Assembly: GCF_020991005.1 (NCBI RefSeq)
Contig: NZ_JAJLLW010000002.1
Span: 62,001 to 126,000, forward strand
DNA from: Halomonas sp. CUBES01
GTDB taxonomy: Bacteria > Pseudomonadota > Gammaproteobacteria > Pseudomonadales > Halomonadaceae
Direction of reading: 5' to 3'
DNA length: 64,000 nucleotides
Part shown: piece after piece, positions 8,372-25,202 of the stretch
How the letters are laid out: each line of letters opens with the position of its first letter
How positions within the stretch are numbered: position 1 is the stretch's first letter
The notes under the pieces: generated by a model
The model's input: the letters and a program-made list of their open reading frames with translations, nothing else
What the model was told of the DNA's origin: nothing
Database searches by the model: none
Translations under genes and position numbers: made by a program

Positions 8372-10336
8372 ATGGCTCACCACAATACGATTTCGCCCAG
8401 TTTCCTTGGCTTCATAAAGGCCCTTGTCGGCACGCTTGAGCGCGGCTTTCAAGGTGGTTTCGTTCAGCTCTACATGGGTAACGCCGAAAGACGCGGTAAT
8501 ATGCAGCGTCTGATGATCACCCTCGTGTTCGATCGTCACCTCATGGGTGTCGATGGTAGTGCGAATGCGCTCCGCGATCTGCTCTGCCTGGGAGATGGCC
8601 GTGTTGGGCAGCAGAATGGCAAACTCCTCACCGCCTACCCGACACAGCAGGTCTTCCTGACGCAGCAGTCCGCTGACCACCGTCGTCAAGCGTTTCAGGA
8701 CTTCATCGCCGGCATCGTGCCCGTACTCGTCGTTGATCCGCTTGAAGTGGTCGATATCAATGGTAATCAATGAAAGCGGTGTGTTGCTCCTGAGGCCTCG
8801 CGATATTTCATTGGTGGCCTGGGACTGCAGATAGCGGCGGTTGAACACCCCGGTGAGCGGGTCGGTCATCGCCTGGGCGAGCAGCTTTTCTTCAAGCTGC
8901 TTGCGTTCGGTGAGATCGAACACGGTTGCGCGCGAATAGATGAAACGCCCGTGCCGACGGTAGCCGGAAGCCTGGATGACCACATGTCGCTGGTCGCCGT
9001 GACGCGTCAGCAGGGTGCATTCCGCCTCGCCCGGCTGGCCGGCGACGACCTGTGCAAAGGCTACATCGAAGGCGTCCTGGGTGTCGGGGGATATCACGTC
9101 GCGGTAGCGCAACTGGCCCACTACCTCGTCAGCGTCAAATCCCAGCCAGCGGCGCTCGGTGCGGTTCATCTTGATGACGATCCCGTCAGCGTTCAACGAG
9201 TGATAGCCGCAGGGGGCGCCTTCATACAGGCTGCGCACTTCGGCGGCTTGCTGCTGGGCATTTTGGCGCAGCTTATGCTGCTGGTGGCTGCTAAAAGCCC
9301 AATAGACGCCAAACGCAACGGCGGTGACATAAAGGAGTCCCAGGAACCAGAGCACCGACGTTTCTTCTTTCAGCAACGATCGCCAACTGGGCGTCGGCAA
9401 GGTCACGCCCATGACCCAGGGGAGCGTATCGCCGGTACTGAAGATCCGTCCCGCCAGGCTGTTGTAGAACTTGGTGCGAACGTCTTCCGTCTGAAAGTAG
9501 AGCATGCGGTCGTCAAGGCGGATGTCGCCTTCAAGCGTGCCCGATAGCAGGCTCCATGGATCCGGGGCGGCGTTGGCGTAATCATCGCCGAATGATAAGT
9601 CAGGAAGCTGGTGGGTGCCTCGGGTCAATAGCCAGCCACCCTGTGCATCGACAAGCAAGACCTTGGCCTGGGGGTTTACCTGCATGGATTGGTAAAGAGA
9701 CTGGGTTAAATGCTGCCAGTTGAGGCTGAGCAGCACGACCCCCTTGCGTTCTCGCTGGCTATTGAAGATAGGGGTGGCGACATTGACGACGGGAATGGCT
9801 TCGCCGCTTGCCATCTCATATTGCAGATTGCGCCCCGGCGGCGATAGATAGATATCTCGCGGGAACAGCTTGGAGGCGCCTTTGAAGTAATCCGTGTGGG
9901 CGTGATTATGCCTGCCCAAGTGTGGTTCGGCGTCGGTGTCCTGTGGAGCGCGAAGCATTTCATTGCCCTCATTATCGATGAGGACGAGTTTGCTGTAGCG
10001 AGGCGTATGATTAATGAAGGCATTCAAAAAAACGCTGAGTTGCGTCGGATCCCTGGACGACACGGCACCCTCACCAACCGGGAGATTGCCCTCCAACCGC
10101 TGTTGAAGGGTCGGCATTTCCGCAATGGCGAGCGCATAGTTGAGCGTTTCGTTGATCTCGCGAACCAGCGCCTCTTCGCCCACGCGCAAAATACCCTTGG
10201 CTTCATCCCGTACCCCGTCCAGGCGTGTTTCCATGTGCATATCCAACACAGGAAATAACGTGGACGTTACCAGGATCAATGGCAGGGTGGCCGCCAATAA
10301 CAAGCGGAGATAAAGGCGCGGCGAAGTCGATCGCAT
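8369..10336 (-). CDS. membrane diguanylate cyclase (dCache-like sensor, PAS, GGDEF)
   Basis: This 655-residue protein makes c-di-GMP from GTP. An N-terminal membrane segment (about 10-28, LRLLLAATLPLILVTSTLF) and a second one near residue 325 (WFLGLLYVTAVAFGVYWAF) flank a roughly 300-residue periplasmic Cache-like sensor. A PAS domain (about 360-470) and a C-terminal GGDEF domain (about 490-650) follow. The active site reads GGEEF, a functional variant, preceded by DPLTGVFNRRYL. I chose the ATG at 10336, with AGGA Shine-Dalgarno and a direct run into the membrane segment; the open frame extends to 10507 without a plausible start. The periplasmic ligand is unknown. Confidence 0.9.
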   Translation of the reverse strand: MRSTSPRLYLRLLLAATLPLILVTSTLFPVLDMHMETRLDGVRDEAKGILRVGEEALVREINETLNYALAIAEMPTLQQRLEGNLPVGEGAVSSRDPTQLSVFLNAFINHTPRYSKLVLIDNEGNEMLRAPQDTDAEPHLGRHNHAHTDYFKGASKLFPRDIYLSPPGRNLQYEMASGEAIPVVNVATPIFNSQRERKGVVLLSLNWQHLTQSLYQSMQVNPQAKVLLVDAQGGWLLTRGTHQLPDLSFGDDYANAAPDPWSLLSGTLEGDIRLDDRMLYFQTEDVRTKFYNSLAGRIFSTGDTLPWVMGVTLPTPSWRSLLKEETSVLWFLGLLYVTAVAFGVYWAFSSHQQHKLRQNAQQQAAEVRSLYEGAPCGYHSLNADGIVIKMNRTERRWLGFDADEVVGQLRYRDVISPDTQDAFDVAFAQVVAGQPGEAECTLLTRHGDQRHVVIQASGYRRHGRFIYSRATVFDLTERKQLEEKLLAQAMTDPLTGVFNRRYLQSQATNEISRGLRSNTPLSLITIDIDHFKRINDEYGHDAGDEVLKRLTTVVSGLLRQEDLLCRVGGEEFAILLPNTAISQAEQIAERIRTTIDTHEVTIEHEGDHQTLHITASFGVTHVELNETTLKAALKRADKGLYEAKETGRNRIVVSH

Positions 10337-14682: not shown

Positions 14683-14901
14683 TTACTCCTCACGCGTCTG
14701 CTTATCATCGGACGTCGGCGGGGTTTTTAACGCCGCAGGATGGTGGTCGCCAACGGCATGCAGAAGATCGAACTGACGCGCACAGGCGCGGCAGGCACCG
14801 CACATGGATAGATGAAAACGGAGCGACGCTCTCTCGCGAAGTGTCAACGCTCTGTCCTGTTTTAACGACATCAGGCGCGTCGCTTCACGGCACATGATCA
14901 T
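14683..14901 (-). CDS. small zinc-finger anti-sigma factor (zf-HC2 type)
   Basis: This 72-residue cytoplasmic protein has the zinc-binding anti-sigma pattern: an N-terminal CREATRLMSLKQDRAL helix, then the H-x3-C-x2-C set in HLSMCGACRACARQF near residue 30. It has no membrane segment, unlike the larger transmembrane anti-sigma factors. It should bind and silence the sigma factor encoded 107 bases upstream, with release perhaps through the Zn/Cys site (redox or metal). That mechanism is known for the ZAS family and is inferred here. The ATG at 14901 has GAGAGGG seven bases upstream; a second ATG at 14895 is possible. The stop is four bases before the DUF3047 start. Confidence 0.82.
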   Translation of the reverse strand: MIMCREATRLMSLKQDRALTLRERASLRFHLSMCGACRACARQFDLLHAVGDHHPAALKTPPTSDDKQTREE

Positions 14902-15008: not shown

Positions 15009-15575
15009 TCAGGCCAACCAGCCTTTTTCGATACAGTGGCGCAGCTTCAGTCGCGCGCGGTGCAGGATGACCCAGCAGTTGGCCTCGGTGATCTCGAGAA
15101 CCTCACAGATCTCCGGTGTTGAAAGCCCCATCAGCTCACGCATCGTGAACACGCGGGCGGTGTTGTCCGGTAGTGCGATCAGGCAGGTATCCAGCACTTT
15201 CCAGAAGGCCTTGTTTTCGAGCACCTGGTCGGGCTCGCCCCAGGGCTTGGGTCGCGTCGTCGCCTGCCAGCGTCCATTGTCCTGAAACAGGCTGTCCAGC
15301 GCGTCTTCGTCGCTCTGGTCGTCGCTCTGCCATGCCACGTAACGACCCTGCTGGCGAAGCCTCTCGAGCATCTTGTTCTTGAGAATACCAAAGACCCAGG
15401 TTTCAAACGCGGAACGTCCGCCAAAGGTATCGTGCTTTTCCAGTGCGGTGACCAGCGTGTCCTGCACGGTATCCTCGGCCGCCGCATTATCGCGAAGCTG
15501 TAGGCGAGCAAAGGCGACGAGCTTGGGTCGCAGCGCCGCAATATGTTCATCGGGTGAGTGCGTGGCAGTTGTCAC
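15009..15575 (-). CDS. ECF-type sigma-70 family sigma factor
   Basis: This 188-residue alternative sigma factor has sigma region 2 (about 12-85, with AAAEDTVQDTLVTALEKHDTF and AFETWVFGILKNKMLERLR). A linker with a tryptophan-rich segment follows, then region 4 (about 125-182, with FTMRELMGLSTPEICEVLEI and NCWVILHRARLKLRHCI). It should direct RNA polymerase to a small stress regulon. The GTG at 15575 is preferred because GAGGA lies just upstream; the frame also opens at a TTG at 15593. Anti-sigma and DUF3047 genes follow on the same strand. The inducing signal is unknown, although neighbouring AhpD-like and peroxiredoxin genes would fit oxidative stress. Confidence 0.9.
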   Translation of the reverse strand: MTTATHSPDEHIAALRPKLVAFARLQLRDNAAAEDTVQDTLVTALEKHDTFGGRSAFETWVFGILKNKMLERLRQQGRYVAWQSDDQSDEDALDSLFQDNGRWQATTRPKPWGEPDQVLENKAFWKVLDTCLIALPDNTARVFTMRELMGLSTPEICEVLEITEANCWVILHRARLKLRHCIEKGWLA

Positions 15576-15640
15576 GTTAGTCCTCAACGACAAGGTCTGA
15601 TAGCAGAAAAGTGTTCATGCTCATACTCGCCTCTGATCCC

Positions 15641-16455: not shown

Positions 16456-17007
16456 TCAAGAGCCTGAATGCTGTAGCTCCCAGTAACGCAACGTCGATGG
16501 GTGAACGCCGAAGTGCTCGGGTAGCGCGATGCCCAGCTGTTCGCAGAGCAGGCCCAGCAGCGCCATGTGGTGAATGCTGTGGCTGGTTAAAAACGCCAGT
16601 TCCCGGCCCAGGCTGGTGGGCAGGGCCACCGAATCGTCGGCGCCATCCACCTCAACAGGGTAGCTCAGCGTCAGGGCGGCGTCGTGGGGCCTGTCTGCCA
16701 GTGCCTCGAGCTCCGCCTGCAACGCTTCGACGCGCTCACCCGCGTAACCGGGCCGGGTTTCCAGCGCCGCTTCCCGCAGGCGTTCTTCATAGTCCAATAC
16801 CGCCTGGGTGGGTGCCGTCGCGCAGGCATCCAGCAGCGTCTGGTAGTGCTCAAGAATATGTCGGATGTGTTTGCCCAGCGACTGAGTACCCTTGGCGCCA
16901 AGCGGGCGCTGGTAGTCGTGTGCCGAGACGCGGCCAAGCAATTGGGCGAGTTGCGCGAGCGTTTGCACGTTTTCGTCTATCAGTGGCGACAGTGATGATG
17001 TCGACAT
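16456..17007 (-). CDS. DinB-like four-helix metalloprotein
   Basis: This 183-residue protein has the DinB/YfiT superfamily pattern: four helices, with His residues in LGKHIRHILEHYQTLL near residue 47 and the second metal-site His group HSIHHMALLGLL near residue 143. DinB-fold proteins include thiol S-transferases and metal-dependent hydrolases; the substrate cannot be told here. I chose the ATG at 17007, nine bases after GGGAGG on the minus strand; longer reading back to 17052 would run through a 10-base hairpin. It lies 77 bases behind the Glu/Gly-rich peptide gene on the same strand, so it may be the third gene of that operon. Confidence 0.72.
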   Translation of the reverse strand: MSTSSLSPLIDENVQTLAQLAQLLGRVSAHDYQRPLGAKGTQSLGKHIRHILEHYQTLLDACATAPTQAVLDYEERLREAALETRPGYAGERVEALQAELEALADRPHDAALTLSYPVEVDGADDSVALPTSLGRELAFLTSHSIHHMALLGLLCEQLGIALPEHFGVHPSTLRYWELQHSGS

Positions 17008-17029
17008 GGTCATTAGCCTCCCGGTGAAG

Positions 17030-17084: not shown

Positions 17085-17342
17085 TTAGCCGGCTTCGGCA
17101 CCGCCTTCGCCTTCTGCTTCTCCCTCGCCTTCACCTTCGCCTTCCGCTTCAGCTTCGCCCTCAGAGCCACCTTCGGCCAGCATCATGGGCGCTTCCTGCA
17201 TCGAGGTGAATCCTTCGGTGGGCTCGTCGGCCTGGGCCTGAAAGGCCAGACCACCCGCGACCAGCGCCAGGGCAGGGGCGGTATAGCCGAACCGGCGGCC
17301 AAGGCGGCTCAGTAAACGACGTTTCGCTTCGTGTTGAGACAT
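17085..17342 (-). CDS. secreted small protein with Glu/Gly/Ala tail, probable substrate of adjacent ligase
   Basis: The 85 residues start with a basic stretch (MSQHEAKRRLLSRLGRR) and a hydrophobic segment (about 20-34). A likely signal-peptidase site follows at AFQAQA/DE, after residue 38. A short middle, PTEGFTSMQEAPMMLA, leads to residues 57-85, composed only of Glu, Gly, Ala and one Ser, mostly as EG and EA pairs. There is no Cys. I chose the ATG at 17342 because AGGAG lies just upstream; the frame runs on to 17465 inside the ligase gene. The tail resembles the acidic Glu/Gly tails of tubulin, substrates of TTL-family ligases, and the gene directly upstream encodes a TTL-type ligase with a peptide-binding domain. 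The role as substrate is inference. Confidence 0.7.
   Translation of the reverse strand: MSQHEAKRRLLSRLGRRFGYTAPALALVAGGLAFQAQADEPTEGFTSMQEAPMMLAEGGSEGEAEAEGEGEGEGEAEGEGGAEAG
17088..17174 (-). repeat. degenerate hexanucleotide repeat encoding the Glu/Gly/Ala tail
   Basis: The 3' end of the small-protein gene is built from about fourteen six-base units of the form CCTTCN or GCTTCN on the plus strand, each coding for Gly-Glu or Ala-Glu. The unit is a multiple of three, so slippage would change tail length without a frameshift. Confidence 0.7.
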
Positions 17343-17400
17343 GAGGCTTCTCCTTAATAGTGTCATAAGCAAATGCGCCAGATGGCGCGACTTCCTGCCG

Positions 17401-19692
17401 CTATACCGCGGCCTGGGAAGAGGGTAAAAGTGGTGTCTGTTTAAGCCACTGGTTAACAGCATCAACTGACGTGCTGGCCAGCCGCGCGCCGTGCGCGCCC
17501 TGGGCCATGTGCTGCAGCGCGGCCAAGGCGTCAGGGCTTAACCCTTGCGGTTGATCTGCTGTTTCCTGGGCCCTGGTCAGCAGGGCGCCGAGCAACTCGA
17601 GCGACGACGGTGCTTCGGAGCTGTCGCTCGGGGCGTCATCAAGCCATAAAAGCCCAACGCAAGGGCCGCGCTCCTGAAACAGGAACCCGGCATCCCCAAG
17701 CGGTAGATTAAGCGGCTCCAGGGTGTCCGGTGCGGCCAGCGACAGGCGTGCCCCACGCGTCAGGGCAAGGCCGTTCTGTGCCGCCACCGCCTTCAGCGTG
17801 TCCGTCGCCTGGGTAGACTGCTGGGCGGGCACCACGCAGACGACATGCCCCTCCGGCCGACTCAGCAGGGCGACATCGAGCACCAACTGGCCGTTACTGG
17901 CAGCGTGGGACAGGCAGAACTGGGTGATGGCGGGGACGATGTCGTCGAGGCGCAGGCGCGAGCGAATCACCCGGCTGTCGCTGGTCAGGCAATAACCGTT
18001 GGCGCTTTCCAGGACATGCAGTGATGTGTCGGCGGTGTTGCCGTCGGTGTCCAGCAGCGGCGTCAGTGTCTCGGTAATCATGGCTGACACGGGGCCCTCG
18101 GGCGCGCTGATCGACCAGCGGCGCTGATCGAAGAACAGCGTACCGCGCCAGGTGGCGGGACGCTCGCGAGCGGAAGATGTCGTGTCGGGCACTGAAATGT
18201 CGCGATCCCCGGGCGCCAGCAGCCCATGTTGCCACCATAGCGAGAGCGTCGCCCACAGATCGCTGGACAGGGTGTCGGTATCGGCCTGCCCGCCGCTTGC
18301 CTCTTGGAGCTGTTCAATTACGCTTTTGATCGGCGCGCCGTCGCTGACCAGCAGCCAGATCAGCGCTGCGCTGTCGTTGAGCTGAAAATAGTGCCCGCTG
18401 GGGTGGTGATAAAGCGCCAGACGATCGTCGTCGATCAGCTCGCTGACGCCCTGGCCGTGGAAAGACAGGCTCAGCGGAGCGAGCTCGGTCGCCAGCCGGT
18501 AATCGGCAAGGCTGGGTAGCCCGACGAAGGGCAGGTAGCGATGGCCGTCCCGGGTCGGGTAGAGCGGTACAAAGCCACCCGCCCGTTCACGCTCGGCCGC
18601 CAGCGCCGCGGCATCGAAGGTGGCCTCGTCGCGGGGCGGCTGATCAAGCCCGGTCAGGGCGATCATGTCCTGCACCAGGCCGGTTTTGACGGCCTCTTCG
18701 ACTACGCCGCCGTGCTCGGGCTTGGCGCAGGTGCCAAGCGAAGGGCTCAGGTTGCACTCCAGAATCCATGGCTTTAGCTGGTCGTCGACCAGACAGTCCA
18801 GGCCGATCAGCTCGTAGCAGCCCCGCGGGTCGGCGCCGTCTTCCCGGGAGCGGGCGCGCATCGCCTCGACGCCGGAGAGCGCGGTCAGCGTGGCCAGATC
18901 CTGCAGCTGGCTAAACAACGCCTGGTCGTCGTGGCCCTGTTCGCGAAGCCAGTGGCGATAGCGGTCAAGGTCGATAAACTCCACCGGAATCTCGGCGTCC
19001 AGGTTGAGCGCGTTGATGTCGGGGTTGGTCAACTGGCTAAAGGGGTTGTCGATGTCATCCGGGCTCCACGGCGCCGAGGCCAGCTTGGCAAAGCCCTGGT
19101 CGTAGAGATACACGCGTAGCGGGTCGATGCTGGCGATCAGCATATACAGGCGCAGCACGTACTTGTGGCCGCGGATGGTATGCGGGTTGGCAACGTATTC
19201 CTGCACCAGCCAGTTGGGTTCCAGCGGGGCACGGACCGGGTCGCGCAACACCTGAACCCCTTGGCCCTTGGACGCATTGGTCGGCTTCAAGATCCAGCGC
19301 TTATCGGGATGCGCGGCGGCGTCTTCGACCAGCGCCGGGTAGTCGTGGGGCATTTCATAGGCGCGCGGGAAGAAATTCAGCCGTTCCGTGTTGGGATGCG
19401 CCTCCCCAAAGTGGCGCCGGGTGCGTTCGCGCAGCCCACTCAACCCCGCATGCAGGCGGCTTTTGACCGTGAGCGCGGCGTTGCCGGGAATGTGGTTCAT
19501 CACGCGGCTGGGAGACGTCGCCTGGAATGCCGCCCTGGGCGGCATGCCGGTCACCCAGGCTGCCTGCCACTGCGCGTCGTCGCCTTGCTGCCAGCCCTTG
19601 GCTTCCAGCGTCTGGCGGAAAAAAACATCCTGCTCGGCATGGCGTTTGCCGCTCAGCCAGAAGCGTGGTGGGGGAGTAGTGTGCGCGCTCAT
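17401..19692 (-). CDS. TTL-type ATP-grasp ligase fused to PqqD-like and HprK-like domains
   Basis: This 763-residue fusion has three parts. Residues about 1-345 are a tubulin-tyrosine-ligase-like ATP-grasp domain: Lys136 in RWILKPTNASKGQGVQVL, QEYV at 164, RGHKYVLRLY at 174, and the Mg2+-binding DCLVDDQLKPWILECNLSPSL (Glu312, Asn314). Residues about 405-495 resemble PqqD, the peptide-leader binding (RRE) fold: YHHPSGHYFQLNDSAALIWLLV. Residues about 510-700 resemble HprK-related proteins, but the P-loop position reads VPAQQSTQATDTL without the GK[ST] needed for nucleotide binding. TTL enzymes ligate amino acids to peptide carboxylates with ATP. The 85-residue Glu/Gly/Ala-tailed peptide is encoded 58 bases downstream and is the likely target. 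The start ATG has AAGGAG upstream. No signal peptide is seen. Confidence 0.8.
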   Translation of the reverse strand: MSAHTTPPPRFWLSGKRHAEQDVFFRQTLEAKGWQQGDDAQWQAAWVTGMPPRAAFQATSPSRVMNHIPGNAALTVKSRLHAGLSGLRERTRRHFGEAHPNTERLNFFPRAYEMPHDYPALVEDAAAHPDKRWILKPTNASKGQGVQVLRDPVRAPLEPNWLVQEYVANPHTIRGHKYVLRLYMLIASIDPLRVYLYDQGFAKLASAPWSPDDIDNPFSQLTNPDINALNLDAEIPVEFIDLDRYRHWLREQGHDDQALFSQLQDLATLTALSGVEAMRARSREDGADPRGCYELIGLDCLVDDQLKPWILECNLSPSLGTCAKPEHGGVVEEAVKTGLVQDMIALTGLDQPPRDEATFDAAALAAERERAGGFVPLYPTRDGHRYLPFVGLPSLADYRLATELAPLSLSFHGQGVSELIDDDRLALYHHPSGHYFQLNDSAALIWLLVSDGAPIKSVIEQLQEASGGQADTDTLSSDLWATLSLWWQHGLLAPGDRDISVPDTTSSARERPATWRGTLFFDQRRWSISAPEGPVSAMITETLTPLLDTDGNTADTSLHVLESANGYCLTSDSRVIRSRLRLDDIVPAITQFCLSHAASNGQLVLDVALLSRPEGHVVCVVPAQQSTQATDTLKAVAAQNGLALTRGARLSLAAPDTLEPLNLPLGDAGFLFQERGPCVGLLWLDDAPSDSSEAPSSLELLGALLTRAQETADQPQGLSPDALAALQHMAQGAHGARLASTSVDAVNQWLKQTPLLPSSQAAV

Positions 19693-19945
19693 ACCGGGCT
19701 CCTTGTCGGGTCATTACCAGTGAGTGGTGGATCAGCGCGATTGCTTACACATGATTTTCAGCAATTGCCAAAAGCAAGCCTCGCACCGATGCCACGACCA
19801 TTGGGGCGTTTATCTATACGTTTATGCCAAAAAAGCATTTTAATAATGGTTTTATATCACCCATTATCATATTAATGTACCAATCGTTCTTTTTCCTGTT
19901 TTACTCAGGTCGATGAGCGTTGCTCGCGACCGCAATGGAGGTTTT

Positions 19946-20917
19946 ATGTCCCGCTTACTATTGGGCCTGATCGGCGCCCTGGGGTTTTCCGCCCAGGCCC
20001 TAGCACTTGAAGAAACGCCGTTTGAAATGACGCCGCTGGTGGATGCCCAGTGGCTAAACGAGCATCTCGATGAAGAGGAATTGGTGGTGTTGGACGTGCG
20101 CTCGTCCATCGACGATGGCGGCGATGCCGAGAGCTTTGCCGAGGCCCGCATTCCGGGCAGCCGCTATTCAAGCTACACCGATGACGGCTGGCGCGAAACC
20201 CGCGACAGCGTAGCGGGCTTGATGCCCGAGGTGGGCGATCTTGAAGCGCTGGTCGGCGACCTGGGGATCGATAACGACAGCGCGGTGGTGATTGTGCCCG
20301 CCGGTACCGGCGCCACCGACTTCGGCAGTGCAGCGCGGGTGTATTGGACGCTTAAAATCCTCGGCCACGACGAGGTTGCCATCCTCAACGGCGGCTTTGC
20401 GGGCTGGGAGCAGCAGGGCTTTGACGTGGCAAGCGGCGAGCCTGAGCCATACGATGCCGCAGAATTCGACGCCACGCTTCGCGAGGAACTGATCGCGTCA
20501 ACCGAGGACGTGGAAGCCGCCCGGGAAAGTCAGGCGCAGCTGGTCGACGCCCGGCCCGCCGACTATTTTGCCGGTGACAACCAATCCTCCGCGGCACGGG
20601 TCGCCGGTACGATTCCGGGCGCGCGGAGCCTGCCCCACCAGTCGCACCTGAACGACCAGAACGGCGCTTACTATCTGGACGTCGAGGGTCTGCAGTCGCG
20701 CATCAATGCCGTGGAGCTGGATAGCAGCGAGCGCACGATTGCCTTCTGCAACACCGGTCATTGGGCCGCGACCGACTGGTTCGTGCTCAGCGAAGTCGCC
20801 GAGTTCGACAACATCGCCATGTATGACGGCTCGATGGCCGCCTGGACCCTCAGCGATTCCCGCCCGGTGCAGCTTGCCCGCGAAGGCATCAAGCAGGTGA
20901 GAGAACTGCTGAACTAA
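19946..20917 (+). CDS. periplasmic tandem-rhodanese sulfurtransferase
   Basis: This 323-residue protein has a signal peptide (about 1-21, LLLGLIGALGFSAQALA) and two rhodanese domains (about 25-165 and 175-320). The second holds the active-site Cys in AFCNTGHWAATDW near residue 268. The first has no Cys at the matching place (VPAGTGATDF) and is structural. Such enzymes move sulfane sulfur from thiosulfate or 3-mercaptopyruvate to a thiophilic acceptor. The ATG at 19946 follows a TGGAGG and fits the signal peptide; the frame opens 33 bases earlier. It is divergent from the TTL-type ligase across an AT-rich 250-base gap that should hold both promoters. Confidence 0.9.
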   Translation: MSRLLLGLIGALGFSAQALALEETPFEMTPLVDAQWLNEHLDEEELVVLDVRSSIDDGGDAESFAEARIPGSRYSSYTDDGWRETRDSVAGLMPEVGDLEALVGDLGIDNDSAVVIVPAGTGATDFGSAARVYWTLKILGHDEVAILNGGFAGWEQQGFDVASGEPEPYDAAEFDATLREELIASTEDVEAARESQAQLVDARPADYFAGDNQSSAARVAGTIPGARSLPHQSHLNDQNGAYYLDVEGLQSRINAVELDSSERTIAFCNTGHWAATDWFVLSEVAEFDNIAMYDGSMAAWTLSDSRPVQLAREGIKQVRELLN

Positions 20918-21138
20918 GCCTCAAGCTTTTCTTCATGCGTCTCATCCCTGGTGTGGTTCGGCTACGCCAGGGACAAGCGTTGCTGTGTCCTTAACGGGCT
21001 TCCCCGTGTCGCTTTTTCCTTGCCCTGCGATCGATAGGGACGCTGGCTCCCCTAATGCCCCTGCGGCATGTTAAATTGATTCTTTAGATAGTGATTGTCC
21101 CGCCTATGGGCGGGCGACAGCTTCCAAGAGTGGTGACG

Positions 21139-21723
21139 ATGGCCATTGGCAGACCCCTACAGCATCAGCCAGAGGAAGCGCTAAAGGCGGCGATTAATAC
21201 CTTCTGGCGCTCCGGCTACTATCATACGTCCATGCGTGACCTGCTTGACGCCATGGCGCTGTCGCGCAGCAGCCTGTACCAGTCGTTCGGCAATAAAGAG
21301 GCGCTGTTCCTGTTAGCCCTGCAGAATTATCGTGACGAACTGCTGGCGACGCTGTCCGAGCAGCTGGACGCCGCCGACAGCGCCTGGTCGTTTATTGAGC
21401 AGCTTCTATATTCAGCCGCCGAGACCGATAGCCAGCAGGCATCGCTTGGCTGCCTGCTGTTCAATTCCGCCACTGAGCTGGGCGGTGAAGATTCGCCGCC
21501 GGCGCAGACCGCCCGGGACAGCGTGGCCAGCATCAATGCGTTCTTCTCGGACGTCATCAAGCGTGCCCAGCAGGAAGGCAGCATTGCCGATACCCGCGAC
21601 CCCGACAGCGCCGCGCAGTTTTTGACGCTGTCCATGTCCGGCCTGCGGCTGTTGATGAAAAACGGCGCCTCGCAGCATCAGGCGCAGCAAACGGTAGACT
21701 TCATTCTGCGCGGGCTGGGCTAG
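21139..21723 (+). CDS. TetR/AcrR-family transcriptional regulator
   Basis: This 194-residue repressor-type regulator has the TetR N-terminal helix-turn-helix (about 8-55: ALKAAINTFWRSGYYHTSMRDLLDAMALSRSSLYQSFGNKEALF). A helical ligand-binding domain follows (about 70-194). The segment LGCLLFNSATELG near residue 110 resembles the C-terminal domain common in regulators of efflux and detoxification genes. I chose the ATG at 21139, which gives the family's usual short lead; a GTG at 21091 would add 16 residues and run through a CCCGCC/GGCGGG inverted repeat (21099-21114). The ZIP transporter gene starts 48 bases downstream, so it could be a target. The effector is unknown. Confidence 0.88.
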   Translation: MAIGRPLQHQPEEALKAAINTFWRSGYYHTSMRDLLDAMALSRSSLYQSFGNKEALFLLALQNYRDELLATLSEQLDAADSAWSFIEQLLYSAAETDSQQASLGCLLFNSATELGGEDSPPAQTARDSVASINAFFSDVIKRAQQEGSIADTRDPDSAAQFLTLSMSGLRLLMKNGASQHQAQQTVDFILRGLG

Positions 21724-21771
21724 GCATTACCCCAGCGCGCTGACCCTATTGAAACAAGGCCCACTTGGCGC

Positions 21772-22551
21772 ATGGAAAATACATTTTTACTCGGTTTCCT
21801 GGGCAGCCTTGCCGCCGGGTCGTTGACGGCCGTCGGCGCGCTACCGGTACTGCTGGGCAAAACCCCTGACCGTGGCTTTCGTGATCTGGCGCTGGGGTTT
21901 GCCGCCGGCGTCATGCTGGCGGCGTCGTTCTTTTCGCTGATCATCCCGGCGCTGGACGCCGCCGAAATCTATTACGCTGGTGGGCCGGTGCCCGCTGCCA
22001 TTGTCTGTGCGGCGATCCTGCTGGGCATGGGGGCGATAGCGCTGCTCAATGAACGCCTGCCCCACGAGCATTTCCAGCAGGGCCGCGAAGGCCCCGAAGC
22101 CGCCTCGCTGCGGCGGGTATGGCTGTTCGTCTTTGCCATTGCCATTCACAACCTGCCCGAGGGCATGGCGGTGGGCGTGGGGTTCGGTGCCAACGGTCTC
22201 GAAGGCGGCATGCCGTTGGCGATCGGCATTGGCCTGCAAAACATGCCGGAAGGGCTGGCCGTGGCGATTGCGCTAATGGGGGAGGGCTATTCCCGATGGC
22301 GGTCGTGGTCGATTGCCGCGCTCACTGGACTGATCGAGCCCATCGGCGGCCTGTTCGGCGCCAGCATTATCAGCGTCTCGCAGATATTGCTGCCCTGGGG
22401 CATGGCCTTTGCCGCCGGGGCGATGCTCTATGTGATCAGCCATGAAATCATTCCCGAGACGCACCGCTGTGGCCACCAGAAGAAGGCGACCTTTGGTCTG
22501 GCCATTGGCCTGGTGATCATGCTGTTCCTCGACGTATGGCTGGGGGCATGA
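21772..22551 (+). CDS. ZIP-family divalent metal transporter (ZupT-like)
   Basis: This 259-residue inner-membrane protein has about eight hydrophobic helices and both ZIP metal-site motifs: HNLPEGMAVGVG in helix 4 near residue 126 and NMPEGLAVAIA in helix 5 near residue 153, plus SHEIIPETHR near residue 223. ZIP proteins of the ZupT/GufA type import Zn2+ and other divalent metals. The loop before helix 4 contains HEHF, a possible metal ligand cluster. The Shine-Dalgarno is weak. It follows the TetR gene closely and is convergent with the MerR regulator, so a zinc-import gene lies next to a zinc/cadmium-export pair. Confidence 0.9.
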   Translation: MENTFLLGFLGSLAAGSLTAVGALPVLLGKTPDRGFRDLALGFAAGVMLAASFFSLIIPALDAAEIYYAGGPVPAAIVCAAILLGMGAIALLNERLPHEHFQQGREGPEAASLRRVWLFVFAIAIHNLPEGMAVGVGFGANGLEGGMPLAIGIGLQNMPEGLAVAIALMGEGYSRWRSWSIAALTGLIEPIGGLFGASIISVSQILLPWGMAFAAGAMLYVISHEIIPETHRCGHQKKATFGLAIGLVIMLFLDVWLGA

Positions 22552-22563
22552 CGCGCCGCCGCA

Positions 22564-23028
22564 TTAACGTAGCGCCTCCGCACCGCCGTGGGCGGTATCG
22601 TGGCCGCACAGCCGGTGATCGCTCAACACTTCAATAATCCGGCACTGGGCGACGCTGTCGCCGTCGCACTGGGCGACCGTCCGCTGCAGTTCGTCGCGTA
22701 GCACGGTCAGCCGCTGGAGGCGCGACTCCACCTCCGCCAGGTGCCGACGTGCCAGCTGATCGACCTGGTCGCACGGCTGGCTTGGGTGGTCGGCCATGTC
22801 GAGTAGCTCCCGCACGGCCTCCACCGAGAAGCCGAAATCCCGCGCATGACGAATGAACATCAAGCGCTGCACCGTTGCCTCGCTGTAACGCCGCTGATTG
22901 CCCTCATTACGCAGGGCGGCGGGCAGCAGGCCGATCTTCTCGTAATAGCGCACGGTCTCCGGCTTGCAGTGGGTCCGGCTGGCGAGTTCGCCGATGCCAA
23001 TGGCGGCATGGCTGGACGTGCTGGTCAT
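22564..23028 (-). CDS. MerR-family metal sensor (CadR/PbrR/ZntR-like)
   Basis: This 154-residue MerR activator has the winged helix-turn-helix (about 10-45: IGELASRTHCKPETVRYYEKIGLL) and a long dimerisation helix. A C-terminal metal loop carries Cys121, Cys129 and Cys141 with nearby His residues. Cys86 lies 35 residues before Cys121, the spacing of the metal Cys pair in CadR and ZntR. It should sense Zn, Cd or Pb and activate the divergent P-type ATPase gene. The shared 68-base gap contains a perfect MerR-type operator with 19-base spacer. The exact metal cannot be told from sequence. Confidence 0.92.
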   Translation of the reverse strand: MTSTSSHAAIGIGELASRTHCKPETVRYYEKIGLLPAALRNEGNQRRYSEATVQRLMFIRHARDFGFSVEAVRELLDMADHPSQPCDQVDQLARRHLAEVESRLQRLTVLRDELQRTVAQCDGDSVAQCRIIEVLSDHRLCGHDTAHGGAEALR

Positions 23029-23031
23029 GGC

Positions 23032-23062
23032 TTGAACCTCTAGTGACTACAGGTATTAGGCT
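23032..23062 (+). promoter_or_regulatory. MerR-type promoter/operator of the metal ATPase gene
   Basis: TTGAAC (23032-23037) and TAGGCT (23057-23062) are 19 bases apart, the stretched spacer typical of MerR-activated promoters. Between them lies the dyad ACCTCTAG-TGA-CTACAGGT (23036-23054), with one mismatch between arms. MerR regulators untwist such promoters when metal is bound. Confidence 0.85.
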
Positions 23063-23096
23063 AATCCCAAGATAGCCGACTGGAAAGGATGATGCC

Positions 23097-25202
23097 ATGA
23101 CGACCCGCCAGGATACCCCCCGCGATACGCTGCGCCTGAACGTTCAGGGCATGGACTGCGGTGGCTGCGAACGCAACGTCGAAACGGCGCTTAACCGCCT
23201 GCCCCAGGTGGAGCAAGTCAGCGCTTCAAGCATGAACGGCACGGTGAGCGTTACCGGTCATGCGCTGGACCACGACACCCTGTCGCAAACGCTGGCAAAG
23301 CTGGGCTACCCCGTGGTGGACGCCTCGCCAGAGGCGTCATCGACGCCACCTTGGTGGCGCACGCCCAAAGGGCAACTGGTAGTGTTTAGCGGGGCGCTGC
23401 TGGCGATCGCAGGGCTGCTGACGATGAGCTTCCCGCTGGTGGGTAGCTGGCCGTTTGTCGTGGCGACGCTGGTGGGCTGGGTGCCGATTGGCCAGGCCGC
23501 CTGGCGCGCGCTGCGCATGGGTAATCCGCTGACCATTGAAATGCTGATGACGATTGCAGCACTTGGCGCCCTGATTATCGGCGCGGCGGCCGAGGCGGCC
23601 GTGGTGGTGTTTCTGTTTGCCGTGGGTGAGTTGCTCGAGGGCGTGGCCGCCGGGCAGGCGCGTCGGCGCATTGCTGCCCTTGCCAATCTGGCCCCGGCCA
23701 TGGCGCGGCTGCTTGAGGGCGACGCCATCCGTGACGTGCCGGCGGACTGGTTAACGCCCGGCCAGCGGGTCCTGGTGCGGCCGGGCGATCGCGTGCCCTG
23801 CGACGGGCGGATCGTCTCGGGGACCTCGCACCTCGATGAGTCGCCTATCAACGGTGAGTCGGTGCCCCGGCAGCGTGCCACCGGCGAGGATATCTGGGCG
23901 GGCACGGTCAATCTCGACGCGGCGTTAGAGGTGGAAGTCACTCGGGGGGCTGCTGACAATACCATTGCCCGGATTATTCACCTGGTCGAAGAAGCACAGG
24001 CCGCCAAAGCCCCAGTGGCGCGCTTTATCGACCGGTTTGCCCGCTGGTACATGCCATTTGTCGTCGGTGTGGCCGTGCTGGTGGCGGTGGTGCCGCCCTG
24101 GCTGACCGACCTGGCCTGGTCCGAGTCGGTCTACCGGGCGCTGGCACTTCTGTTGATTGCCTGCCCGTGCGCGCTGGTCATCTCGACGCCGGCGGCCATT
24201 GCCGCGGGGCTTTCAACCGCCGCGCGGCGTGGTCTTTTGATCAAGGGCGGTGCCGTGCTTGAACAGCTGGGCAAGCTCCAGCGCGTGGCGGTGGATAAAA
24301 CCGGGACCCTGACCGCTGGTGCGCCCAGCGTGACCGATGTTGAAGCATGGACCGAGTCGAGCGAGGACGAGGTGGTCAGGTTGGCCGCCGCGCTGGAGCA
24401 GGACTCGAGCCACCCGGTGGCGCAGGCCATTGTGCAGCATGCAGAGCAGTTGGGGCTGTCGCTGGGCAGGGCATCCGAGGGGCAGGCTCAGGCCGGGCAG
24501 GGTGTCAGCGGTCGGTTCGAGGGCCGGCAGTTAACCCTCACAAGCCCGCGCCATTGGCAGGGGACCGAGACCCAGTCAGCGCGAATTGCCGCGCTTGAAG
24601 CAGAGGGTAAAACGGTGGTTCTGTTGCTGGCTGAAGGAAGCGCGCTTGGCGTGCTGGCGCTGCGCGACGAACCCCGTGAGGATACCCCTGCAGCAATCGA
24701 CGCGCTCAACCGCCTGGGCGTCAGCGTGGTGATGCTCAGCGGCGACAACGCGCGCACGGTGGCCGCCATGGGTAAGCAGTTGGGTATTGAGGCCGAAGGC
24801 GAGCTGATGCCCGAGGACAAGGCCCAGCGGGTGCGGGACTGGCAGGCCCAGGGTCTGGGGCCCGTGGGTAAAGTGGGTGACGGTATCAACGATGCCCCGG
24901 CGCTGGCGGCCGCCGACGTGGGGGTTGCCATGGGCGGCGGTACCGACGTGGCGCTGGAAACCGCCGATGCGGCGCTGCTCAAGAATCGCGTGATGGGCGT
25001 CGCCGAGCTGATCGGGCTATCGCGAGCCACGCTACGCAACGTCAAGACCAATGTGGTGCTGGCGCTGGGCTTCAAGGCGATATTTCTGGTGTCGACGCTT
25101 GCAGGCGTGACCGGGATGTGGGTGGCGGTCATGGCGGATACCGGTGCCACCGTGCTGGTGACTCTCAATGCGATGCGTCTGCTCGGCTACCGGTTCCGTT
25201 AA
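23097..25202 (+). CDS. zntA: Zn/Cd/Pb-exporting P1B-type ATPase (ZntA/CadA-like)
   Basis: This 701-residue inner-membrane pump exports soft divalent metals using ATP. The order of domains is an N-terminal HMA domain with GMDCGGCERNV near residue 18, membrane helices, and an actuator domain with SPINGESVP near residue 250. The metal-site motif IACPCALVIS near residue 355, phosphorylation site DKTGTLTAG near residue 400, and GDGINDAPAL near residue 597 follow. A CPC motif with a single HMA domain fits the Zn/Cd/Pb class, and the MerR regulator of CadR/ZntR type supports this over copper. Expression should rise with metal through the divergent promoter. Confidence 0.93.
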   Translation: MTTRQDTPRDTLRLNVQGMDCGGCERNVETALNRLPQVEQVSASSMNGTVSVTGHALDHDTLSQTLAKLGYPVVDASPEASSTPPWWRTPKGQLVVFSGALLAIAGLLTMSFPLVGSWPFVVATLVGWVPIGQAAWRALRMGNPLTIEMLMTIAALGALIIGAAAEAAVVVFLFAVGELLEGVAAGQARRRIAALANLAPAMARLLEGDAIRDVPADWLTPGQRVLVRPGDRVPCDGRIVSGTSHLDESPINGESVPRQRATGEDIWAGTVNLDAALEVEVTRGAADNTIARIIHLVEEAQAAKAPVARFIDRFARWYMPFVVGVAVLVAVVPPWLTDLAWSESVYRALALLLIACPCALVISTPAAIAAGLSTAARRGLLIKGGAVLEQLGKLQRVAVDKTGTLTAGAPSVTDVEAWTESSEDEVVRLAAALEQDSSHPVAQAIVQHAEQLGLSLGRASEGQAQAGQGVSGRFEGRQLTLTSPRHWQGTETQSARIAALEAEGKTVVLLLAEGSALGVLALRDEPREDTPAAIDALNRLGVSVVMLSGDNARTVAAMGKQLGIEAEGELMPEDKAQRVRDWQAQGLGPVGKVGDGINDAPALAAADVGVAMGGGTDVALETADAALLKNRVMGVAELIGLSRATLRNVKTNVVLALGFKAIFLVSTLAGVTGMWVAVMADTGATVLVTLNAMRLLGYRFR

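What the first reader, a model, noticed from the sequence alone, without database searches (positions are those of the whole stretch)
17085..19692. Putative bacterial peptide-tail ligation system: TTL-type ATP-grasp/PqqD/HprK-like fusion with a Glu/Gly-tailed secreted peptide
Seen: a 763-residue protein whose N-terminal half has the full TTL ATP-grasp motif set (ILKP with Lys136, QEYV, RGHKYVLRLY, and PWILECN with Glu312/Asn314). It is followed by a PqqD-like segment and a degenerate HprK-like segment. Directly downstream is an 85-residue gene with a basic N-terminus, signal sequence and a tail of only Glu, Gly, Ala and one Ser. Known: TTL-family ligases add Tyr, Glu or Gly to acidic Glu/Gly-rich tubulin tails, and PqqD-like domains bind leader peptides of ribosomally made modified peptides. 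Inferred: the large protein binds the basic leader through its PqqD part and ligates amino acids or amines to Glu side chains or the C-terminus of the tail. The product is then exported. I know of no characterised system with this combination.
Basis: partly seen in the sequence, partly recalled or inferred. Interest (0 to 1): 0.85.

Follow-up and report, generated by a model that had tools for sequence, protein, structure and literature searches.

The report
Bacterial tubulin-ligase-like peptide tagging system
A halophilic bacterium carries an enzyme built like the ones that decorate animal tubulin tails, fused to a peptide-gripping domain, and it appears to tag secreted proteins that carry tubulin-like glutamate/glycine-rich stretches, which would be an undescribed kind of bacterial protein modification.

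Summary
The fusion (17401-19692, minus strand) has a TTL ATP-grasp domain (Pfam E 2.5e-49; nearest solved relatives TTLL6 and TTLL7 polyglutamylases) and a PqqD/RRE domain (E 6e-7; nearest solved relatives lasso-peptide RREs). Directly downstream is an 85-aa secreted-looking peptide with a Glu/Gly/Ala tail. The HprK-like claim is not supported.

The pairing is general. In 201 Halomonadaceae genomes the fusion is in 46, the peptide's leader in 47, both in 45. In 293 genomes of the order, both are in the same 3. The leader is a signal-peptide-like segment holding YxxPxL, the lasso leader motif. The same leader heads c-type cytochromes whose Glu/Gly/Ala segment is internal; one stands beside an alphaproteobacterial fusion. 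In 435 kb of fetched DNA, 35 of 35 ORFs with such a segment carry the leader pattern, against 71 of 1806 others.

Best reading: a RiPP-like, leader-guided TTL ligase adds amino acids, most likely Glu on Glu side chains, to these segments before Sec export, as TTLL5 does on RPGR Glu-Gly repeats. Binding, ligation, amino acid and function are inferred; no structure model could be made (server busy). No paper on such a system was found in six searches.

The parts
17401..19692 (-). TTL-RRE fusion, 763 aa: candidate leader-guided amino-acid ligase
18700..19509 (-). TTL ATP-grasp domain, residues 62-331
   Evidence: Pfam TTL E 2.5e-49; TTLL6 profile match 1.2e-54; 19 checked positions identical in 64 of 64 rows
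18217..18414 (-). PqqD/RRE domain, residues 427-492: candidate leader-binding part
   Evidence: Pfam PqqD E 6.2e-7; lasso RREs TbiB1 0.0013 and TfuB1 0.0032 by profile
17404..18195 (-). C-terminal part, residues 500-763, poorly conserved, no family match, no Walker A
17085..17342 (-). 85-aa candidate client peptide
17229..17342 (-). Leader/signal-like segment, residues 1-38, ending in A-x-A
   Evidence: sequence; leader profile A2 E 1.3e-22 in own genome; no signal-peptide predictor was available
17268..17285 (-). YxxPxL motif (YTAPAL), residues 20-25
   Evidence: YxxPx[LFMV] in 74 of 80 relatives, HxxPxL in 6; lasso leader motif in PMC10368454
17088..17174 (-). Glu/Gly/Ala tail, residues 57-85: candidate modified segment
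   Evidence: sequence; mixed codons in the tail
16456..17013 (-). DinB-like gene, conserved next to the pair; role unknown
   Evidence: Pfam DinB_2 8e-7; recurs beside fusion loci
15009..15593 (-). ECF sigma factor of the conserved neighbourhood, possible regulator
   Evidence: Pfam Sigma70_r2 1.3e-14; recurs
14683..14901 (-). zf-HC2 protein, possible anti-sigma factor
   Evidence: Pfam zf-HC2 3.8e-9; recurs
19913..20917 (+). Divergent rhodanese-domain protein, conserved neighbour in Halomonadaceae loci
   Evidence: Pfam Rhodanese 1.7e-21; recurs

Best explanation
A leader-guided protein-modification system of RiPP type. The fusion's RRE grips the YxxPxL motif inside the signal-like leader of a client protein; the TTL ATP-grasp domain then activates carboxylates in the client's Glu/Gly/Ala-rich segment and ligates amino acids to them, most likely glutamate onto Glu side chains. 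The client is then exported by Sec and the leader removed. Clients are the adjacent peptide, a second peptide beside DoxX and, in many relatives, a c-type cytochrome with an internal E/G/A segment. Shown here: domains, intact catalytic residues, leader motif, linkage of leader with segment, co-occurrence with the enzyme. Inferred: binding, ligation, which amino acid and where, export order, and the role outside (an acidic, perhaps cation-binding or redox-related coat, perhaps under the ECF sigma factor).
For: TTL domain and conserved catalytic positions; solved relatives ranked TTLL6, TTLL7, TTLL11 glutamylases before the glycylase-type 5vlq and TTL; RRE closest to lasso RREs TbiB1 and TfuB1, and leader motif YxxPx[LFMV] in 74 of 80 equals the lasso leader motif (PMC10368454); 45 of 201 genomes with both, 1 with the fusion only, 2 with the leader only; same 3 of 293 in the order; E/G/A ORF beside the fusion in 42 of 46 loci, 36 of 40 after removing re-fetched contigs; 35 of 35 E/G/A ORFs carry the leader pattern against 71 of 1806 other ORFs (5 of 1806 with a stricter pattern); cytochrome clients with internal segments, 9 of 9 long leader ORFs read, and an alphaproteobacterial fusion next to a leader-like cytochrome. 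Parallel: TTLL5 glutamylates RPGR Glu-Gly repeats (PMC13052805).
Against: No activity, binding or structure data. The leader could be only an export signal. In Marinobacter and Robiginitomaculum cytochromes the Tyr of the motif is V or L, and in 6 of 80 peptides it is His. Pfam sees no PqqD in the Robiginitomaculum fusion and only a sub-threshold one in two of ten homologues scanned. One genome (G508) has a leader cytochrome without a detected fusion. The glutamate preference rests on sequence rank alone.
Confidence: 0.6

Rival explanations
1. Same guided system, but glycine or another amine, not glutamate, is ligated to the Glu side chains (polyglycylation-like).
For: TTL-family glycylases act on Glu side chains of similar tails (PMC12340829, search listing); 5vlq, which I recall as Xenopus TTLL3, matches at 1.5e-13.
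Against: TTLL6, TTLL7 and TTLL11 match far better (1.2e-54, 1.4e-43, 8.1e-27), though rank does not prove specificity.
Confidence: 0.14
2. The enzyme extends the C-terminus of the peptide, as TTL does with Tyr or TTLL11 with Glu, and the tail is the handle.
For: 11 of 80 relatives end in Tyr, one of them a truncated cytochrome; TTLL11 initiates on a C-terminal carboxyl (PMC11574253, abstract).
Against: In the cytochromes read the E/G/A segment is internal and the C-terminus is usually not E/G/A-rich; the Robiginitomaculum cytochrome has both an internal and a C-terminal segment.
Confidence: 0.12
3. The E/G/A segments are plain acidic spacers; the fusion binds the leader for another purpose or modifies another molecule, and the genes travel together for regulation.
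For: No modification is shown; adjacency and co-occurrence alone do not prove a substrate; G508 has a leader cytochrome with no fusion found.
Against: Near one-to-one co-occurrence, also where the peptide hit lies on another contig (G560, G564), and leader-segment linkage.
Confidence: 0.1
4. Graspetide-like ring formation between Glu side chains and Lys, Ser or Thr of the tail.
For: ATP-grasp enzymes make such links in graspetides (PMC8939145, start of abstract); Marinobacter tails hold Lys.
Against: The domain matches the TTL model, not a graspetide-type one; the window's tail has no Lys or Thr and one Ser.
Confidence: 0.04

Closest known systems
Eukaryotic TTLL glutamylases, above all TTLL5 acting on RPGR-ORF15 Glu-Gly repeats
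   Same: Same enzyme family; Glu/Gly-rich low-complexity target; a separate docking site steers the enzyme (PMC13052805, passages)
   Different: Bacterial; docking part is an RRE fused to the enzyme; target is a signal-peptide-bearing secreted protein; activity not shown here
Bufferins and other MNIO-modified RiPPs with Sec signal peptides
   Same: Small or larger precursors whose signal peptide stands in for a leader; clusters with DoxX and sigma factors (PMC12452194, passages)
   Different: No MNIO enzyme among the neighbours scanned, and no Cys in the window's peptide; the enzyme is a TTL ligase
Lasso peptides (RRE B1 and YxxPxL leader)
   Same: RRE subtype and leader motif
   Different: No lasso cyclase or protease among the neighbours scanned; leader also looks like a Sec signal
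Graspetides
   Same: ATP-grasp enzyme modifying Glu-bearing precursor peptides
   Different: Other ATP-grasp family (TTL); PMC8939145 has no hit for 'tubulin' or 'TTL' (passages)
SidJ-type bacterial glutamylases
   Same: Bacterial proteins that glutamylate proteins (PMC6858067, PMC8548325; search listing)
   Different: Pseudokinase fold and injected effectors, not ATP-grasp

Membership tests
TTL/TTLL ATP-grasp ligases | TTL domain above the curated cut-off | tested here: met
   E 2.5e-49, 168.5 bits against 20.1; E<=2.5e-49 also in 10 of 10 homologues
TTL/TTLL ATP-grasp ligases | Conserved ATP/metal residues | tested here: met
   19 positions identical in 64 of 64 rows, incl. K136, D299, E312, N314; their roles are recalled
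TTLL polyglutamylases | Closer to glutamylases than to glycylases or TTL | tested here: inconclusive
   Best solved matches are TTLL6, 7, 11; no tree with eukaryotic TTLLs was built
TTLL polyglutamylases | Ligates Glu to Glu | not testable with these tools
   Needs enzyme assay
RRE-dependent RiPP systems | PqqD/RRE domain | tested here: met
   30.1 bits against cut-off 23.4; in 10 homologues above cut-off in 7, weaker in 2, none in the Robiginitomaculum one
RRE-dependent RiPP systems | Conserved leader motif in a linked precursor | tested here: met
   YxxPx[LFMV] 74 of 80, HxxPxL 6 of 80; linkage
RRE-dependent RiPP systems | Leader bound, core modified, leader cleaved | not testable with these tools
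   Needs binding and mass data
Lasso peptides | B2 protease and C cyclase genes nearby | tested here: not met
   None among the 7 window proteins scanned or the 7; other window genes not scanned
Bufferins (MNIO RiPPs) | MNIO enzyme and Cys-bearing precursor | tested here: not met
   No MNIO among proteins scanned; no Cys in the peptide
Graspetides | Graspetide-type ATP-grasp ligase | tested here: not met
   Match is to TTL
HprK-like kinases | HprK domain with Walker A | tested here: not met
   No model hit; Walker A beyond residue 480 in 1 of 234

The most novel reading that the evidence does not exclude
A bacterial counterpart of the tubulin code: a TTLL-type enzyme with a built-in RRE writes glutamate chains on Glu/Gly-rich segments of exported peptides and cytochromes c, whose signal peptide doubles as the RiPP leader. 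It would be a new RiPP class defined by a TTL ligase and the first bacterial TTLL-type glutamylation known to me.
Probability: 0.45. Interest if true: 0.93.

Novelty: new variant of a known kind. Interest (0 to 1): 0.83.

Why it matters
TTLL enzymes and Glu-Gly tails are studied as eukaryotic cytoskeleton biology. A bacterial pair with the same enzyme family, the same kind of tail and a portable leader would give a simple system for TTLL specificity, add a ligase chemistry to leader-guided peptide modification, extend such guidance to a redox protein, and give a testable function to proteins that databases now call 'amylase', 'PqqD family peptide modification chaperone' or 'tubulin polyglutamylase TTLL5'.

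Tried and rejected
HprK-like kinase in the C-terminal part: rejected for lack of a family match or Walker A. Chance neighbour: rejected by adjacency and co-occurrence. Plasmid-borne system: no match among 72,556 plasmid records. DNA-repeat artefact of the tail: codons are mixed in the window's tail and in the last 20 residues of 46 leader peptides without CxxCH, some of them re-fetched or longer-start copies; the count also ran over cytochrome domains and is not used. Leader hits judged chance: own-genome C25 (E 0.67, 12 residues), G454 (E 0.009, still counted in the 47) and G103 (E 6e-4, inside a 443-aa frame, still counted in the 3). L091 (G772) matches only the TTL part and was not followed. 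Papers: six searches gave no bacterial TTL-RRE or TTL-RiPP system in what they listed (one search listed 10 of 16, one search listed 25 of 59; none of those 25 holds either tubulin-ligase term). A 2009 survey of ATP-grasp amidoligases that I recall was not held, so a prediction there is not excluded.
Full report
What is there. On the minus strand lie a 763-aa gene (17401-19692) and, 58 nt downstream, an 85-aa gene (17085-17342) with an AAGGAG 7 nt before its ATG. The large protein has a TTL domain at residues 62-331 (E 2.5e-49) and a PqqD domain at 427-492 (E 6.2e-7). The remaining C-terminal part matches nothing in Pfam or NCBIfam at E<=1; ten homologues scanned with Pfam at a loose limit gave no HprK match, and Walker A occurs beyond residue 480 in 1 of 234 full-length homologues. 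The small protein has a basic start, a hydrophobic stretch, an A-x-A end (AFQAQA) and a tail of E, G, A and one S; no signal-peptide predictor was at hand.

The enzyme. With a profile of 64 fusions, the best solved matches are TTLL6 (1.2e-54), TTLL7 (1.4e-43) and TTLL11 (8.1e-27); then 5vlq (1.5e-13; I recall it as Xenopus TTLL3, a glycylase) and TTL (2.2e-11). The 19 TTL positions checked are identical in 64 of 64 rows. The PqqD part matches lasso-peptide RREs (TbiB1 0.0013, TfuB1 0.0032; NCBIfam lasso PqqD 3.1e-5, below its cut-off). Against this: in ten homologues PqqD was above Pfam's cut-off in 7, weaker in 2 and absent in the Robiginitomaculum one. Between the window and that homologue the TTL part is 54% identical, the 405-495 part 26% and the rest 13%.

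The peptide family. A search for the peptide gave 80 relatives (sequences). 74 have YxxPx[LFMV] and 6 HxxPxL inside the hydrophobic segment; the last 30 residues are on average 38% E, 28% G and 19% A; 11 end in Tyr, one of these a truncated cytochrome. YxxPxL is the conserved leader motif of lasso precursors (PMC10368454, passages). The relatives were found partly through the leader, so its conservation is not independent evidence.

Adjacency. Forty-six fusion loci were fetched. An ORF with an E/G/A tail lay beside the fusion in 42 of 46. Of the four misses, L013 has the peptide with a short tail; L016 has a leader-like cytochrome as divergent neighbour; L036 and L039 (G560, G564) have a long leader ORF about 5 kb downstream (read as a cytochrome in G560; not read in G564) and a further leader hit on another contig. 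Sixteen further family matches were not among the loci; by coordinates, 15 of 16 have a leader hit within 0.7 kb and G413, a fusion fragment, has none.

Co-occurrence. In the same 201 Halomonadaceae genomes the fusion is in 46 and the leader profile in 47: both in 45, fusion only in G413, leader only in G508 and G454 (the latter E 0.009, probably chance). Fisher p is 2.8e-41, uncorrected for relatedness. In 293 genomes of the order the same 3 have both, the window's own genome being one. In the small order around G735, 3 of 3 have both. In phylum samples the fusion was in 3 of 398 and the leader in 3 of 249, one of them chance-looking. In the class 4 of 350 match the fusion profile, one by its TTL part only. 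Most genomes, including close relatives in the same genus, lack both.

More likely clients. The own genome has a second leader peptide on another contig, after a DoxX gene; no leader cytochrome was found there. In L004 and L007 a DoxX-peptide pair sits between the ECF sigma and zf-HC2 genes. All nine long leader ORFs read hold an internal E/G/A segment and a CxxCH domain; three cytochromes scanned match Pfam SoxA-TsdA_cyt-c. In Robiginitomaculum the protein divergent from the fusion is such a cytochrome, with Lys and Pro in its segment and a second E/G/A stretch at its end. Over 25 loci and the window (435,031 bases), 35 ORFs have an E/G/A stretch and 35 of 35 carry the leader pattern, against 71 of 1806 other ORFs, or 5 of 1806 with a stricter pattern; 21 of the 35 come from loci chosen by the fusion or from the window, 14 from loci chosen by a leader hit. 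The stretch uses mixed codons, so the composition is held at protein level.

Neighbourhood. A divergent rhodanese, DinB, CMD, ECF sigma, zf-HC2, DUF3047 and the cytochrome recur around the fusion in Halomonadaceae, and DinB and the cytochrome also in two Marinobacter loci. In L089 and L090, DoxX stands between fusion and peptide (DoxX scanned in L089 only). A tree of 21 TTL domains, midpoint-rooted, puts Halomonadaceae with Marinobacter, Alkalilimnicola and two MAGs, and Aquisalimonas, Natronocella, Sediminicurvatus, Robiginitomaculum and others on the other side; 6 of 18 inner forks are open. Whether the fusion is old or has moved between lineages was not tested.

How it most likely works. 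The RRE binds the leader through YxxPxL, the TTL domain ligates amino acids to the E/G/A segment, and the product leaves by Sec. Side-chain ligation is favoured because the cytochrome segments are internal; glutamate because the nearest solved relatives are glutamylases. The closest functional parallel is TTLL5, which glutamylates the Glu-Gly repeats of RPGR and is steered by a separate docking site (PMC13052805, passages). The closest organisational parallel is the bufferins, whose precursors carry Sec signal peptides and whose clusters include DoxX and sigma factors (PMC12452194, passages). A structure-based survey of RREs lists its RiPP marker enzymes without TTL and has no hit for 'tubulin' (PMC12710340, passages). 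I found no paper on a TTL-RRE system in six searches of an open-licence library; subscription papers are mostly missing from it.

Limits. No structure model could be obtained (18 requests answered 'busy'), so fold and docking are untested. The ligated amino acid, the site and the periplasmic role are inferences. C-terminal extension, glycylation and a spacer-only role of the segment remain open.

Noticed in passing
L079 8152-8418 minus and 8452-8880 minus (own genome, contig C30): A second leader + E/G/A peptide of the same genome follows a DoxX gene, far from the fusion.
   Followed up: yes
G437 C9, G453 C8, G451 C1, G474 C3, G489 C1: Two leader-bearing genes lie in tandem within a few hundred bases of each other beside the fusion in these genomes.
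   Followed up: no
G413 C12:523071-523697 minus: Only the first 210 residues of the fusion match and no leader protein was found in this genome: enzyme and clients may have been lost together, or the contig is cut.
   Followed up: no
L083 6780-7487 (G508): A leader cytochrome in a genome where no fusion was detected: lost, unassembled, or a leader that works without the enzyme.
   Followed up: no
L016 3789-4676 minus: Next to the leader-like cytochrome lies another CxxCH protein with a long Lys/Glu/Ala-rich stretch but no such leader.
   Followed up: no
window 19913-25202: Beyond the rhodanese lie TetR, a ZIP-like transporter, MerR and a heavy-metal P-type ATPase; the rhodanese, TetR and ZIP-like genes recur at related loci. 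The names TetR, ZIP-like, MerR and P-type ATPase are read from the sequence, not from a search.
   Followed up: partly
homologues of the fusion: Public records name this protein 'amylase', 'PqqD family peptide modification chaperone' or 'tubulin polyglutamylase TTLL5'; the first looks like a spread mis-annotation.
   Followed up: no
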